Source of the DNA: Theionarchaea archaeon
Lineage (GTDB): Archaea > Methanobacteriota_B > Thermococci > Methanofastidiosales > SZ-28-30
Direction: 5' to 3'
DNA: 55,942 nt
Assembly: GCA_018992685.1 (NCBI GenBank)
Contig: JACVGT010000038.1
Span: 1 to 55,942, forward strand
Shown here: piece after piece, positions 2 to 7,783 of the stretch
Layout of the letters: the number at the start of each line of letters is the position of its first letter
Position numbering within the stretch: position 1 is the first letter of the stretch
The notes under the pieces: model-generated
The model's database searches: none
Seen by the model: only the letters and a program-made list of their open reading frames with translations
What the model was told of the DNA's origin: nothing
Program-made: the position numbers and the translations under genes

Positions 2-1240
2 ACAACATACACGTACAATGAAATGAATGAGCTGCTCTCTCTTTCAGATCCCAGTGGGAATTCTACCTTCACTTATGATATTTACGGAAATTTGGCTACT
101 GAGGATGATGGTCAGAACCTATGGGAATACTCTTACGACTACGAAAACAGACTTGTATCAATTAAGGAAGATGGTCAGGTAATAGAAGAGTACTTCTATG
201 ATGGTGAGGGAAAGAGGATCAAGAAAACTGATGCTGACTCTGAAAGAGTCTATATATATGGCGGCTTAAACGTTCTCCATGAGGTGAACACAACGACTCA
301 AATGGAAGCTACCTACATCTATGGACCCACTGGACAGCTGGCCAAGAAAGTGAATGACATCACAGAATACTACCACACAGATCACCTGGGTTCTACCAGA
401 CTGGTGACATCAGAAAATGGTGTGACAACTGAGGAAATTAAGTACAGACCTTTTGGTGAACAGCTCAATGAAACAGAAGAAAGATATACGTATAATGGAA
501 AGGAATTAGATGAAACTGGTCTCTATTACTACGGTGCCCGCTACTATGATCCTGTTATTGGTCGTTTTATCACAAGAGATCCACTGACAGGAGAAAAGGA
601 ATCTCCTCAAACTCTCAATAGATATGTGTATTGCCTAAATAATCCTTTGAGATATATTGATCCAACAGGGGAAGGCATTCTTGATACAGTCAAGAATACT
701 TTCGGGCGACTTGAGAGTTTAGAGCCAGAAGATCTCGAGGAAGTTCAGGATCTCTTGGATGCTGGGAAGGAACTTGAAGCCCTAATGAAAATCTTTCTGT
801 TATTAGGATTTGACATCACAGATAATGGAAATGGAACTCTAAACCTCAACCTAGGTGAAGGTAAGCAATTCACCGTGAACATTGACAACAATCTAATAGA
901 TCCTGACAATGGTCAGCCTGCTTGGGGACTCACGGATAATGAGAATTTCACGATCTCAATCAACTTGTCTACTAAGAAAGCAGGAGATGCCACATTGACC
1001 GTACTCCATGAGGTTTGCCACGGCCTATTGGGTAACACACGTTCCGACATAATAAGAGTGGAACATGAATTTATATATCCTATGGAGCAAGCATTCATGA
1101 ATGCCATGATAAACTCTTCGAACATTGAATTCTCAAGGAAATTCCAGAATCATATCATTGGACAGACTGCAATCCAGAAGCGACACGTTCCAATCGTTGA
1201 TGTACTGAACCGATGGAAAAGGGGGTGGAGAATATTATGA
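2..1240 (+). CDS. RHS/YD-repeat protein, C-terminal part, with HExxH tip domain (5' end outside window)
   Basis: The frame is already open at the left edge and reads YD-repeat-like sequence before its first ATG (position 23), so the gene begins outside the window. Counting from that ATG, YD repeats run to about residue 115. The RHS core follows: DHLGSTRL near 120, YRPFGE, GLYYYGARYYDP, GRFITRDP and NRYVYCLNNPL, ending about residue 217 in DPTG. RHS proteins form a shell around a variable C-terminal effector. Here the tip is about 185 residues and carries VLHEVCH (codons near 1007-1021), an HExxH zinc-peptidase signature followed by Glu/His-rich sequence. A metallopeptidase effector is an inference. 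The stop codon overlaps the ATG of the next gene (ATGA), so the two are probably co-translated. Confidence 0.9.
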   Translation, partial: TTYTYNEMNELLSLSDPSGNSTFTYDIYGNLATEDDGQNLWEYSYDYENRLVSIKEDGQVIEEYFYDGEGKRIKKTDADSERVYIYGGLNVLHEVNTTTQMEATYIYGPTGQLAKKVNDITEYYHTDHLGSTRLVTSENGVTTEEIKYRPFGEQLNETEERYTYNGKELDETGLYYYGARYYDPVIGRFITRDPLTGEKESPQTLNRYVYCLNNPLRYIDPTGEGILDTVKNTFGRLESLEPEDLEEVQDLLDAGKELEALMKIFLLLGFDITDNGNGTLNLNLGEGKQFTVNIDNNLIDPDNGQPAWGLTDNENFTISINLSTKKAGDATLTVLHEVCHGLLGNTRSDIIRVEHEFIYPMEQAFMNAMINSSNIEFSRKFQNHIIGQTAIQKRHVPIVDVLNRWKRGWRIL

Positions 1241-2808
1241 GAAAGAAGTGCCTCCTTATCGTTCTCCTGATTGGATTGATAGGATTCAGTGCTACTCTTA
1301 TGGCAGTGCAGCCAACAGAAGATGAGAGAATTTTTTTTGTCTCAGACAGAGATAGTATACACCAAATATTCACTGTAGACAGTGATGGAGAAAGTCTTTC
1401 AAGACTAACAGATGACTCTTACAAGCATTCGAATCCCTGCTGGTCTCCTGATGGAGAAAAGATTGCTTTTGTATCAGACAGAGATGGAAATAAAGAGATT
1501 TATACTATGAAGAGTGATGGGAGTGATATCCAGAGACTTACCACAGATACTGCTTCTGATGACTCACCGTGCTGGTCTCCTGATGGAGAAAAGATTGCTT
1601 TTGTATCAGACAGAGATGGAAATAAAGAGATTTATACTATGAAGAGTGATGGGAGTGATATCCAGAGACTTACCACAGATACTGCTTCTGATGACTCACC
1701 ATGCTGGTCTCCTGATGGAGAAAAGATTGCTTTTGTGTTAGAGAGGATGTACTTCTCTCATATCTTTACTGTAGATACTGACGGAGGCAATCTAATGCAG
1801 GTGACGACAGGTGATATCACGACCGATAATCCTTCCTGGTCTCCTGATGGAAAACGAATTGTATTCGAGGCATGTGAAAGTGCAGGGTTTCAGATATTCA
1901 TCATGGAAGGCAACGGCACCAACCAGGAAAAGGTGAGCTCCAACGGGAGATGCACTCACTTCACTCCTGCACCATCCCCGGATGGGAGTAAGATTGCCTT
2001 TACTCTGATCTGTGGAGAATCCAGCCTGCAGGCTTATCTCATGAATGCTGATGGGAGCAATTATGTGGATTTTTCCCTTTCGGATGCTGTCAATGGATGG
2101 CCAGCCTGGTCTCCGGATGGGAAGAGAATTGCTTTTACGGGATATAAAGACGAAATATGTGGGATCTACCTGTTGCATATTGATACAGGTGACATAGTGA
2201 ATCTGACAAGAAGTCCAGGGCTGGATATGTCTCCTGCCTGGTCTCCGGATGGGAAGAGAATTGTCTTTTCTTCAGAAAGAAGTCTGAACAGGGACATCTA
2301 TAGCATACAAAGTGATGGAAGTGATGAAAGGAGACTAACTAAGGACTTTCATGATGACTGTGATCCTGCCTGGTCACCCGATGGCAAGAAGATCGCCTTT
2401 TCCTCAGAGCGGGATAGTAACTGGGACATTTATGTCATGAATGCTGATGGAAGCAATGTAGAAAGGCTTACCGATAACTCCTCACATGAGTGGGACCCCT
2501 CCTGGTCTCCAGATGGGAGCAAGATTGCCTTTGTATCGGATAGAGATGGAAATTATGAAATCTATGTCATGAATGCTGATGGTACTGATCAGGTGAATTT
2601 AACCAATAATCCAGCCGATGATAGTGATCCTGAGTGGTGCTGCCGGACCTTCCAACCGATAGAATCGATTCAGCCCGGAAGCACTTCTCACGCTCCGCCT
2701 TCTCCTGAGAGACTATTATCACAGTGGGTTTTGGCTATTTTCATTATTTCACTGGTGGCAATTGTGGCCATTTTCGTAGGCAGAAAAATTATCGTGAAAA
2801 GAGAATGA
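1237..2808 (+). CDS. Secreted, membrane-anchored TolB/PD40-type beta-propeller protein
   Basis: The start is ATG 1237, six bases after GGGGGTGGAG; an earlier in-frame ATG at 1213 would lack this site and lengthen the overlap with the RHS gene. The product (523 aa) begins with a signal peptide (MRKKCLLIVLLIGLIGF). It continues with about ten PD40 blades of the form SPDGxKIAFxSDRDGNxEIYxMxxDGS, and ends in one transmembrane helix (WVLAIFIISLVAIVAIFVG) with a basic tail. It should therefore face the outside, anchored at its C-terminus. PD40 propellers usually bind proteins or glycans. Its ATGA overlap with the RHS gene suggests a surface receptor, anchor or immunity partner for the RHS protein; that role is inference. 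Blades three and four are near-identical at the DNA level. Confidence 0.88.
   Translation: MRKKCLLIVLLIGLIGFSATLMAVQPTEDERIFFVSDRDSIHQIFTVDSDGESLSRLTDDSYKHSNPCWSPDGEKIAFVSDRDGNKEIYTMKSDGSDIQRLTTDTASDDSPCWSPDGEKIAFVSDRDGNKEIYTMKSDGSDIQRLTTDTASDDSPCWSPDGEKIAFVLERMYFSHIFTVDTDGGNLMQVTTGDITTDNPSWSPDGKRIVFEACESAGFQIFIMEGNGTNQEKVSSNGRCTHFTPAPSPDGSKIAFTLICGESSLQAYLMNADGSNYVDFSLSDAVNGWPAWSPDGKRIAFTGYKDEICGIYLLHIDTGDIVNLTRSPGLDMSPAWSPDGKRIVFSSERSLNRDIYSIQSDGSDERRLTKDFHDDCDPAWSPDGKKIAFSSERDSNWDIYVMNADGSNVERLTDNSSHEWDPSWSPDGSKIAFVSDRDGNYEIYVMNADGTDQVNLTNNPADDSDPEWCCRTFQPIESIQPGSTSHAPPSPERLLSQWVLAIFIISLVAIVAIFVGRKIIVKRE
1441..1704 (+). repeat. Exact tandem duplication of one propeller blade (2 x 132 bp)
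   Basis: Bases 1441-1572 and 1573-1704 are direct repeats of 132 bp (44 codons) that differ at one base only (G at 1569, A at 1701, a silent change). About 30 bases of a third copy continue from 1705. The unit is one propeller blade, so the duplication stays in frame and changes blade number. The near identity indicates recent expansion or ongoing gene conversion. Confidence 0.95.
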
Positions 2809-2994
2809 GACACTAACTTGAAAAAGAAGGAAACCCCTCATGGACTGCATCGGTGATCGCTCAGTAGGGAAGTTCCAGATGTGAGAAAAGCTTTACGGTG
2901 CACATGAAAAAGCATGTCTTATAGACTATCCCTGTCCAGAATGTCAGGTTCCCATCGCCGAAATACTCAAAGGATGGACATGGGAGTGAAAATC

Positions 2995-3282
2995 ATGAGA
3001 AGAATAAAATCTATTTTGACGGTCCTGGTCATAGGACTCATATCTATGTTTTTGCTGTCTTCTGTGCAGGCTTATCAATTGACAGAGTCAACTCAGCCTG
3101 AAGGAGGTCCTCACATTTCTTTTCCTCTTGAAGGATTTCTACCGTGGTTTTTCTGTGTTCGTTTCAAAGGTCATACTCAGAAAACGAGGATTGAAAGTCT
3201 CGTCTTCATCAACGTACTCGTCTGGATCTTGCCTGTTTCAAAGGTCATACTCAGAAAACGAGGATTGAAAGTCTATTCTTGA
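2995..3282 (+). pseudogene. Signal-peptide gene fragment running into the CRISPR array
   Basis: ATG 2995 follows GGGAGTGAAAATC and opens a 95-codon frame. Its first 27 residues are a good signal peptide (MRRIKSILTVLVIGLISMFL), similar in style to that of the preceding propeller protein. After TESTQPEGG the frame loses protein-like character and reads through CRISPR repeats 1 and 2 (3161-3271) before stopping. The most likely reading is the 5' remnant of a secreted-protein gene whose body was lost, with the array now downstream. A genuine small secreted peptide with a chance C-terminus is the alternative. Confidence 0.45.
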
Positions 3283-3343
3283 AACTGGTCTTGTATGTCT
3301 CCGGGGGTTTCAAAGGTCATACTCAGAAAATGAGGATTGAAAG
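3161..3343 (+). CRISPR. Orphan CRISPR mini-array, 3 repeats and 2 spacers
   Basis: Three 37-bp repeats lie at 3161-3197, 3235-3271 and 3307-3343. They begin GTTTCAAAGGTCATACTCAG and end GAGGATTGAAAG; the first two are identical and the third has one change (C to T at 3331). Spacers are 37 bp (3198-3234) and 35 bp (3272-3306). The terminal ATTGAAAG matches the usual 5' handle of type I/III crRNAs, which orients transcription to the right. The mutated last repeat agrees with a trailer end on the right. No cas gene is present in the window, so processing and acquisition would need Cas proteins encoded elsewhere. No clear AT-rich leader is visible upstream. Confidence 0.9.
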
Positions 3344-3403: not shown

Positions 3404-3586
3404 ATGTCAACAACTGTAGCAGTATCAAGAGAGACCAAGGAAATGCTCAGAAAGCTGGGCGAGAAAGGAGAGAGTTATGACTCTATCATACGTAAATTAG
3501 TCGAAAAGGCTTCCTGGAAGGAACTTGATGACCGTTGGAACAAAATACTTACAGAAGATGAGTTTATACCTCTCGATGAACTATGA
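3404..3586 (+). CDS. Antitoxin of a RelBE/ParDE-type pair (VapB/DUF7557-like)
   Basis: A 60-aa product beginning MSTTVAVSRETKEMLRKLGE and continuing GESYDSIIRKLVEKA. This is the short DNA-binding antitoxin pattern common in archaeal RelE and VapC operons: an N-terminal beta strand, then helix-turn-helix, then an acidic C-terminus that wraps the toxin. ATG 3404 is preferred because AGGCGAT lies five bases upstream; ATG 3398 (two residues longer) is possible. Its stop (TGA 3584-3586) overlaps the toxin start, the usual coupled arrangement. It should neutralise the toxin and repress the operon through the palindrome at 3358-3371. Confidence 0.8.
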   Translation: MSTTVAVSRETKEMLRKLGEKGESYDSIIRKLVEKASWKELDDRWNKILTEDEFIPLDEL

Positions 3587-3855
3587 TGTACACGATCCTT
3601 GTTTCCAAAACATTTCTGAGGCAATTTACAAACCTAGAGAGTAGCATACGAGAAAAAATCAGATTAGCATTAAGAAATCTAGAAACAGACCCGTTCAAAT
3701 CTCGTTCTGGTACGGATATCAAAAGACTCTCCCATACTCGCCCTACAAAGTACAGATTGCGGGTAGGGACTTATAGAATCATCTATGTTGTGGAGAATAA
3801 GACAGTGAAAGTACTGGAAGTTTTCAAGAGAGGAAAAGAGTACAGGAATGTCTGA
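3583..3855 (+). CDS. RelE/ParE-family toxin (probable mRNA interferase)
   Basis: A 90-aa basic protein with the RelE fold pattern: an N-terminal strand (YTILVSKTFLRQF), two helices with LALRNLETDPF, and the C-terminal signature YRLRVGTYRIIYVV followed by VLEVFKRGKEYR. The Arg of RLRVGTYRIIY and the closing Lys/Arg/Tyr group correspond to the residues that contact or cleave mRNA in RelE. Two consecutive ATGs (3583 and 3586) overlap the antitoxin stop. Family members act on ribosome-bound mRNA (RelE) or on gyrase (ParE); sequence alone does not decide, but the C-terminus is closer to RelE. Confidence 0.85.
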   Translation: MMYTILVSKTFLRQFTNLESSIREKIRLALRNLETDPFKSRSGTDIKRLSHTRPTKYRLRVGTYRIIYVVENKTVKVLEVFKRGKEYRNV

Positions 3856-7326: not shown

Positions 7327-7764
7327 ATGAAAGTGGATGTTGACTGCATCATGCGGAATGGTGAAGTAGAAATTGGCATCTCATTAGTAGAACGCATATC
7401 CCAGCAGGAATTCGAAGAATATGCAGACACCTTACGGAGAGAAGGATTCGAATACGATTCCTACAATCAAAGCAATTTCTTCACCACGAAAACTCCGAGA
7501 ATGCTTGCTGCAATGCTCAAATTTCTGGATAAAGAATATCAAGTTGAGGGAAAACTCAGAGGTAAGAAAGTATATTCTTGGGAAGAAAGAGACCAATTTG
7601 TGAAAGACTTCGAAGCATCACTTGTTCAACCAGGGCCTGAACCTGATGCAGAACCTTCTCATACCCATACTGAACCTTCTCATACCCATACTGAACCTTC
7701 TCATACCCATACTGAACCTTCTCATACCCATACTGAACCTTCTCATACCCATACTGAACCATAA
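7327..7764 (+). CDS. Unknown protein with C-terminal SHTHTEP repeat tail
   Basis: About 145 aa from ATG 7327, favoured because a TATA box at 7299-7306 predicts a leaderless transcript there; ATG 7309 is in frame but lies upstream of the predicted start. The first 100 residues look like one small globular domain (ERISQQEFEEYADTLRREGF, then LAAMLKFLDKEYQVEGKLRG) that I do not recognise. After a Pro/Glu linker (VQPGPEPDAEP) come five identical SHTHTEP heptads, giving ten His. Such a tail could bind Zn, Ni or Cu or act as a flexible spacer. The gene converges on nth. Confidence 0.65.
   Translation: MKVDVDCIMRNGEVEIGISLVERISQQEFEEYADTLRREGFEYDSYNQSNFFTTKTPRMLAAMLKFLDKEYQVEGKLRGKKVYSWEERDQFVKDFEASLVQPGPEPDAEPSHTHTEPSHTHTEPSHTHTEPSHTHTEPSHTHTEP
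7651..7755 (+). repeat. Five exact 21-bp coding repeats (SHTHTEP)
   Basis: The 21-bp unit GAACCTTCTCATACCCATAC+T is repeated five times without a mismatch (7651, 7672, 7693, 7714, 7735). Exact DNA identity indicates slippage-driven expansion, so copy number is probably variable between relatives. Confidence 0.95.
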
Positions 7765-7783
7765 TTCTCAGAACTCACCTAAT

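What the first reader, a model, noticed from the sequence alone, without database searches (positions are those of the whole stretch)
2..2808. RHS protein with HExxH effector tip overlapping a membrane-anchored propeller gene
An archaeal RHS shell ends in a domain with VLHEVCH, suggesting a metallopeptidase effector. Its stop overlaps (ATGA) the start of a surface-anchored TolB-like propeller. RHS toxins usually carry a small immunity gene next; here the next gene is a large exposed receptor-like protein, so the pair may be a new delivery or recognition arrangement.
Basis: partly seen in the sequence, partly recalled or inferred. Interest (0 to 1): 0.6.

Follow-up and report, generated by a model that had tools for sequence, protein, structure and literature searches.

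The report
Archaeal RHS toxin paired with surface propeller
In a Theionarchaeon, a secreted RHS toxin whose tip looks like a zinc protease is encoded directly in front of a membrane-anchored beta-propeller; the two genes travel together in several copies, which suggests that the propeller is the cell's own antidote rather than part of the weapon.

Summary
Window 2-1240 is the 3' end of an RHS gene, cut by the contig start, with a ~190-aa HExxH tip. Its stop overlaps (ATGA) the start of a 523-aa TolB/PD40 beta-propeller with signal peptide and C-terminal membrane helix. The tip has no Pfam/NCBIfam hit; a modest model resembles zincins, and a Glu lies 21-23 residues after the HExxH in all four relatives. 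The genome holds four such tips. All four are followed within 21 nt by a surface-anchored propeller (three PD40, one unrelated PQQ type). None of six RHS genes with other tips is. One tip keeps its propeller without any RHS shell, so the propeller follows the tip, not the delivery part. Two related bacterial genomes carry further RHS tip-propeller pairs, mostly with cysteine-rich tips, in which tip family and propeller family match. I therefore prefer a toxin-immunity pair: a metallopeptidase acting outside the membrane, neutralised by an anchored propeller. This works like the Tpe1-Tpi1/VgrG2b-PA0261 and Tse1-Tsi1 pairs, but with a full propeller, RHS delivery and an archaeal host. No toxicity, protease activity or binding was tested. 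Novelty: new variant of a known kind.

The parts
2..667 (+). 3' part of the RHS/YD-repeat shell, ending in the RHS-associated core and DPTG (5' end cut by the contig start)
   Evidence: TIGR03696 E 8e-25, RHS_repeat E 3e-7; contig boundary
668..1240 (+). C-terminal tip, zincin-like metallopeptidase domain with stop
   Evidence: alignment A1 of four genomic relatives; model and VIA-align matches to zincins; no Pfam/NCBIfam family
1007..1021 (+). HEVCH zinc-binding/catalytic motif
   Evidence: H, E and H invariant in four tips
1085..1087 (+). Glu140 of the tip, candidate third zinc ligand (22 residues after the second His)
   Evidence: Glu at +21 to +23 in all four tips (read from sequences)
1237..2808 (+). 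surface-anchored TolB/PD40 beta-propeller, candidate immunity protein; ATGA overlap with the RHS stop
   Evidence: PD40 E 7e-88, TIGR02800 E 9e-114; AlphaFold2 model pLDDT 81
1237..1299 (+). signal-peptide-like N-terminal helix of the propeller protein
   Evidence: hydropathy, helix 2-21 in model
2725..2781 (+). C-terminal membrane anchor of the propeller protein (residues 497-515) followed by a basic tail
   Evidence: hydropathy 2.9; helix 491-520
1435..1698 (+). two 132-bp blade repeats, 99% identical: recent blade duplication
2809..2855 (+). 3' flank shared with the C35 tip-propeller cassette (87% over 47 bp)
3062..3147 (+). remnant of a second propeller gene's 3' end, 97.7% identical to the propeller at G000:C19

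Best explanation
An RHS polymorphic toxin and its cognate immunity gene. Inferred mechanism: the RHS protein is secreted and encloses its C-terminal tip. The tip, released after the DPxG boundary, is a gluzincin-like metallopeptidase that cleaves proteins outside the membrane (cell surface or the space under the S-layer) of neighbouring cells. The producer and its kin are protected by the downstream gene, a propeller exported by a signal peptide, held in the membrane by its C-terminal helix and facing outward, which binds and blocks the matching tip. Start-stop overlap couples the synthesis of the two. Shown: gene order, overlap, domain content, predicted anchoring, co-inheritance of tip and propeller families. 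Inferred: peptidase activity, toxicity, binding and protection.
For: (1) Four of four HExxH tips in the genome are followed at -4 to +21 nt (one overlapping by about 28 nt) by a propeller with signal peptide and C-terminal membrane helix. Six RHS genes with other tips in the same genome are not; several are followed by small membrane proteins. (2) The propeller goes with the tip, not the shell: the C35 tip has no RHS shell upstream yet keeps its propeller, overlapping as usual. (3) The most divergent tip (C27, the only intact full-length 2290-aa RHS) has an unrelated PQQ-type propeller with the same anchoring. (4) Two related bacterial genomes have RHS tip cassettes followed by anchored or lipoprotein propellers at -21 to +14 nt, some in tandem cassette arrays; one further, HExxH, tip has a divergent candidate 247 nt downstream. 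(5) Tip families and propeller families match: 8 of 11 propeller pairings coincide with tip pairings, 3 of 200,000 permutations reach this. (6) Tip model and profile point to zincins. (7) Precedents: extracytoplasmic HExxH effectors with envelope-anchored immunity (PMC6899460); partial propeller Tsi1 (PMC3391265); predicted propeller PefE (PMC5714391); orphan Rhs tip/immunity cassettes (PMC3967940).
Against: No experiment. The permutation result also follows if neighbouring genes simply duplicate together. The C19 tip is frameshifted from its shell, C35 lacks a shell and C22 is cut by the contig, so only C27 is an intact full-length example. Free-standing surface propellers exist in the genome (C3, and others on C1, C3, C30, C5), so surface propellers have other uses here. 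One bacterial HExxH RHS tip (L261) is followed by a multi-spanning membrane protein instead. The tip model is modest (pLDDT 66) and Foldseek alone gave no significant match.
Confidence: 0.6

Rival explanations
1. The propeller is a surface receptor, tether or docking protein for the RHS weapon: it holds the secreted RHS on the producer or recognises target cells, so the pair is a delivery/recognition module.
For: The propeller is exposed, large and membrane-anchored; propellers in TcB and teneurins are part of RHS-related machines (PMC3482391, PMC13018210).
Against: Shells with other tips in the same genome have no propeller, and a tip without a shell keeps one; propeller families follow tip families. 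A delivery part should follow the shell.
Confidence: 0.15
2. The HExxH protein is not a toxin but a secreted surface peptidase, with the propeller as its adaptor, substrate or activator in ordinary surface remodelling.
For: Propellers are common partners of peptidases (PD40/DPP IV N-domain similarity); no toxicity is shown; Theionarchaea have other surface propellers.
Against: The tip sits exactly where RHS toxins carry variable toxin domains; sister RHS genes carry unrelated tips with small membrane proteins behind; orphan and array cassettes resemble toxin/immunity arrays.
Confidence: 0.12
3. Hitch-hiking: surface-propeller genes are frequent in repeat-rich, recombining islands and landed behind RHS genes without functional coupling.
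For: Integrase fragments and repeat-mediated contig breaks around the loci; three copies come from one homologous cassette.
Against: Start-stop overlaps and short gaps; two unrelated propeller families behind one tip family; recurrence in unrelated bacteria; about 21 propeller genes in the genome makes 4 of 4 adjacency unlikely.
Confidence: 0.1

Closest known systems
Rhs-CT/RhsI polymorphic toxin-immunity pairs, including orphan rhs cassettes (Zhang et al. 2012 PMC3482391; Koskiniemi et al. 2014 PMC3967940)
   Same: RHS shell ending in DPxG, variable C-terminal tip, adjacent same-strand gene, orphan core-tip-immunity cassettes
   Different: The neighbour is a 466-605 aa anchored surface propeller; the host is an archaeon; Zhang et al. 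[quoted passage not shown]
Tpe1-Tpi1 / VgrG2b-PA0261 T6SS metallopeptidase effector-immunity pairs (PMC6899460)
   Same: HExxH zincin toxin acting outside the cytoplasmic membrane, immunity protein anchored in the envelope by lipid or membrane helix
   Different: Delivered by T6SS VgrG or as cargo, small immunity proteins; no sequence relation was found or specifically tested here
Tse1-Tsi1 (PMC3391265) and PefE of Proteus mirabilis (PMC5714391)
   Same: Propeller-like fold used as immunity: Tsi1 is a partial propeller resembling DPP IV, against a periplasmic peptidase; PefE is a predicted bladed propeller
   Different: T6SS and not RHS; Tsi1 has three sheets and is not membrane-anchored; different sequence families
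Teneurins/bacterial teneurin-like proteins and TcB-TcC (PMC13018210, PMC3482391)
   Same: A YD/RHS shell working with a propeller
   Different: There the propeller is a domain of the shell protein itself, not a separate anchored protein that follows the tip
Tox-MPTase1-5 zincin tips of bacterial RHS toxins (PMC3482391)
   Same: HExxH tips at the end of RHS proteins
   Different: No Pfam match between this tip and any family at E below 1; no immunity proteins were listed for those families

Membership tests
RHS polymorphic toxin (Rhs-CT/RhsI) | RHS-associated core ending at a conserved DPxG before a variable tip | tested here: met
   TIGR03696 E 8e-25 ending at DPTG, residue 223; unrelated tips on sister RHS genes
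RHS polymorphic toxin (Rhs-CT/RhsI) | adjacent downstream same-strand gene, co-inherited with the tip | tested here: met
   4 of 4 in the genome and matching tip/propeller families elsewhere
RHS polymorphic toxin (Rhs-CT/RhsI) | secretion signal on the full-length protein | tested here: inconclusive
   window copy is cut at its 5' end; the C27 paralogue has an N-terminal hydrophobic segment, read by eye
RHS polymorphic toxin (Rhs-CT/RhsI) | tip is toxic and neighbour neutralises it | not testable with these tools
   needs expression experiments
Zincin metallopeptidase (HExxH) | HExxH on the active-site helix after a beta-sheet | tested here: met
   HEVCH in helix 105-121 after strands; H, E, H invariant in four
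Zincin metallopeptidase (HExxH) | third metal ligand | tested here: inconclusive
   Glu at +21 to +23 in all four tips, but the region has pLDDT below 50
Zincin metallopeptidase (HExxH) | overall fold similarity to solved zincins | tested here: inconclusive
   VIA-align: best two rows archaemetzincins (Z 5.8 and 5.0), most of the top 23 rows zincins; Foldseek E above 0.1; profile hits to SPRTN and ERAP1 at E 0.06-0.2
Tox-MPTase1-5 | sequence match to the described families | tested here: inconclusive
   no Pfam match at E up to 1 for the window protein; not compared family by family
TolB of the Tol-Pal system | TolB propeller with N-terminal domain in a Tol-Pal operon of a diderm | tested here: not met
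   TIGR02800 scores above cut-off on the propeller repeats only; N-terminal signal then propeller, C-terminal membrane anchor, archaeal host, RHS neighbour
Tpe1-Tpi1 metallopeptidase pair | sequence relation to VgrG2b C-terminal domain/PA0261 | not tested
   resemblance is in arrangement only

The most novel reading that the evidence does not exclude
Membrane-anchored, complete beta-propellers are a recurrent class of immunity protein for RHS toxins that act outside the membrane, in archaea and bacteria. Blade duplication and loss (99% identical blades in the window gene; a shorter repeat array than its relatives) would be the way their specificity changes.
Probability: 0.45. Interest if true: 0.65.

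Novelty: new variant of a known kind. Interest (0 to 1): 0.5.

Why it matters
Little is known of how archaea fight and recognise kin. If the pairing is toxin and antidote, it adds an envelope-acting RHS protease with a surface immunity protein to the archaeal arsenal. It also fills a gap noted in 2012, that propellers had not been seen among polymorphic-toxin immunity proteins. It gives surface-propeller genes next to RHS tips, usually annotated TolB-like, a testable function.

Tried and rejected
The four-row tip profile found no relative outside the window's genome in 115 genomes of the phylum, and a genome-contig scan with two tips confirmed none. Foldseek against PDB with the tip model gave no significant match. 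A home-made blade profile and single-propeller phmmer found no propellers among genes behind 79 other RHS loci, because the propellers diverge too far (the blade profile was also built from a single blade, so it was weak). Reading of those genes plus Pfam showed only two candidates (L151 and L169); the L169 lipoprotein has only weak propeller hits and is not counted. In the Thermoplasmatota, RHS loci occur in 17 of 292 genomes and none showed a propeller behind, though many of those loci were cut before the next gene. Considered and rejected: that ATGA overlap alone proves coupling; that the propeller is a true TolB; that the linkage is a general feature of RHS genes.

Full report
What is there. 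The window is one whole contig (G000:C22) of a 3.03 Mb archaeal genome. Its only same-genus genome in the collection, G001, is Theionarchaea archaeon SZ_28-30: G001 contig C86 has the same length (29,756 bases) as JACVGW010000025.1 and the same 84% RHS match. The gene at 2-1240 is the 3' end of an RHS gene; its 5' part lies beyond the contig. It ends in the RHS-associated core (TIGR03696, E 8e-25) and, after DPTG, a tip of about 190 residues that matches no Pfam or NCBIfam family. The stop codon overlaps the next start in ATGA. The next protein (1237-2808, 523 aa) has a signal-like N-terminus, nine PD40 repeats and a C-terminal membrane helix.

The tip. Four homologous tips exist in the genome (C22 window, C19, C35, C27). 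H114, E115 and H118 are invariant, and each has a Glu 21-23 residues after the second His, as in gluzincins. The model (pLDDT 66) puts HExxH on a helix after a beta-sheet. VIA-align's rows are led by archaemetzincin, SPRTN, selecase/jannalysin and IrrE, all HExxH zincins, at Z 4.4-5.8. Foldseek alone gave nothing significant. Profile search of PDB sequences gave only weak hits, the best four of them zincins (SPRTN, ERAP1). A zinc-peptidase tip is likely but not proven.

The linkage. All four tips are followed by an anchored propeller: C22 (ATGA overlap), C19 (15 nt), C35 (overlap about 28 nt), C27 (21 nt). Three propellers are homologous PD40 proteins (42-47% identical). The fourth is a PQQ-type protein (PF13360 E 1e-41) with the same topology. 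RHS genes with other tips in the same genome (C20, C18, C6, C7, C15, C23) are followed by small or membrane proteins, or by none nearby; 4 of 4 against 0 of 6 is p = 0.005 by Fisher's test (1 in 210). The genome has about 12 PD40 and 9 PQQ_2 genes, so adjacency by chance is unlikely even if the three PD40 cassettes are counted as one event. In G001 one RHS with a different, hydrophobic tip is followed at 21 nt by a propeller lipoprotein, so propellers are not tied to HExxH tips alone.

Which part does the propeller belong to? C35 has a tip of 142 aa with no RHS shell in any frame upstream, yet keeps tip-propeller overlap. The C19 tip is separated from its shell by a one-base insertion while its propeller is intact. 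Free-standing propellers of the same family exist (C3; C26 and a second on C19 have unknown 5' neighbours at contig ends). The window itself holds an 86-bp remnant, 97.7% identical to the 3' end of the second C19 propeller gene, at 3062-3147. So the propeller follows the tip and survives tip decay, as immunity genes do. This argues against the delivery reading.

Elsewhere. Among 79 RHS loci of other organisms, two had a candidate propeller behind. One led to genome G121 (bacterium MAG-56), where RHS tips, mostly cysteine-rich, are followed by propellers at -21 to +14 nt, including a 570-aa PD40 lipoprotein (PD40 E 2e-104), some in arrays of orphan core-tip cassettes. A related genome, G413, has the corresponding pairs. 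Several of the MAG-56-type propellers have only weak Pfam support. Families match across loci: tips B1/B2 50%, B3/B4/B5 29-51%, B6/B7 32%, with propellers B1/B2 36%, B3/B4/B5 37-47%, B6/B7 28%. A label permutation reached the observed agreement in 3 of 200,000 trials, with the caveat that joint duplication of neighbours gives the same pattern. G121 also has an HExxH RHS tip with a candidate anchored propeller 247 nt downstream (its Pfam support is weak), but its G413 relative is followed by a multi-spanning membrane protein. Thus HExxH-propeller pairing is a habit of this archaeal genome, not a rule.

Mechanism and comparison. The simplest account is a toxin that works outside the cytoplasmic membrane and an outward-facing anchored antidote. 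Tpe1-Tpi1/VgrG2b-PA0261 shows that logic with HExxH effectors and envelope-anchored immunity (PMC6899460). Tsi1, a partial propeller resembling DPP IV (PMC3391265), and PefE (PMC5714391) show that propeller-like folds can serve as immunity. Zhang et al. (PMC3482391) wrote in 2012 that propellers had not been found among polymorphic-toxin immunity proteins, and a phrase search of open papers found no later claim (subscription journals are not covered). I class this as a new variant of a known kind. The shown steps are gene order, families, anchoring signals and co-inheritance; catalysis, toxicity, binding and protection are inferred.

Noticed in passing
window 3161-3343: CRISPR mini-array: three 37-bp repeats with 37- and 35-bp spacers, identical in repeat to a 61-copy array at G000:C7:142373-146796, lying just after the propeller-gene remnant at 3062-3147.
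   Followed up: partly
window 1435-1698: Two successive propeller blades are 99% identical at DNA level (132 bp), a recent blade duplication; compared with relatives the window propeller lacks a stretch of about 75 residues.
   Followed up: partly
window 3404-3855: Short ORF followed by a ParE/RelE-type toxin gene (PF05016 E 1e-7), probably a type II toxin-antitoxin pair.
   Followed up: no
window 7646-7781: 21-bp tandem repeats encoding SHTHTEP at the C-terminus of a 151-aa protein.
   Followed up: no
L014 3462-4544 and 8119-8313; L020 5269-5736: Tyrosine-recombinase-like gene and fragments of it flank the RHS/propeller loci on C19 and C7, a possible route of cassette movement.
   Followed up: no
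L239, L241, L260, L261: Genomes G121 and G413 hold tandem arrays of RHS core-tip cassettes, many with cysteine-rich tips, each followed by a propeller or a multi-spanning membrane protein.
   Followed up: yes
L169 7296-8742: Firmicutes RHS with a papain/Lnb_N-like tip (H and C motifs) followed at 22 nt by a lipoprotein with weak propeller similarity.
   Followed up: partly
L116 1239-2855 and L053 4127-5740: Secreted proteins in both Theionarchaeal genomes ending in a CACACACVSCACACASGGGF-like cysteine-alanine repeat.
   Followed up: no
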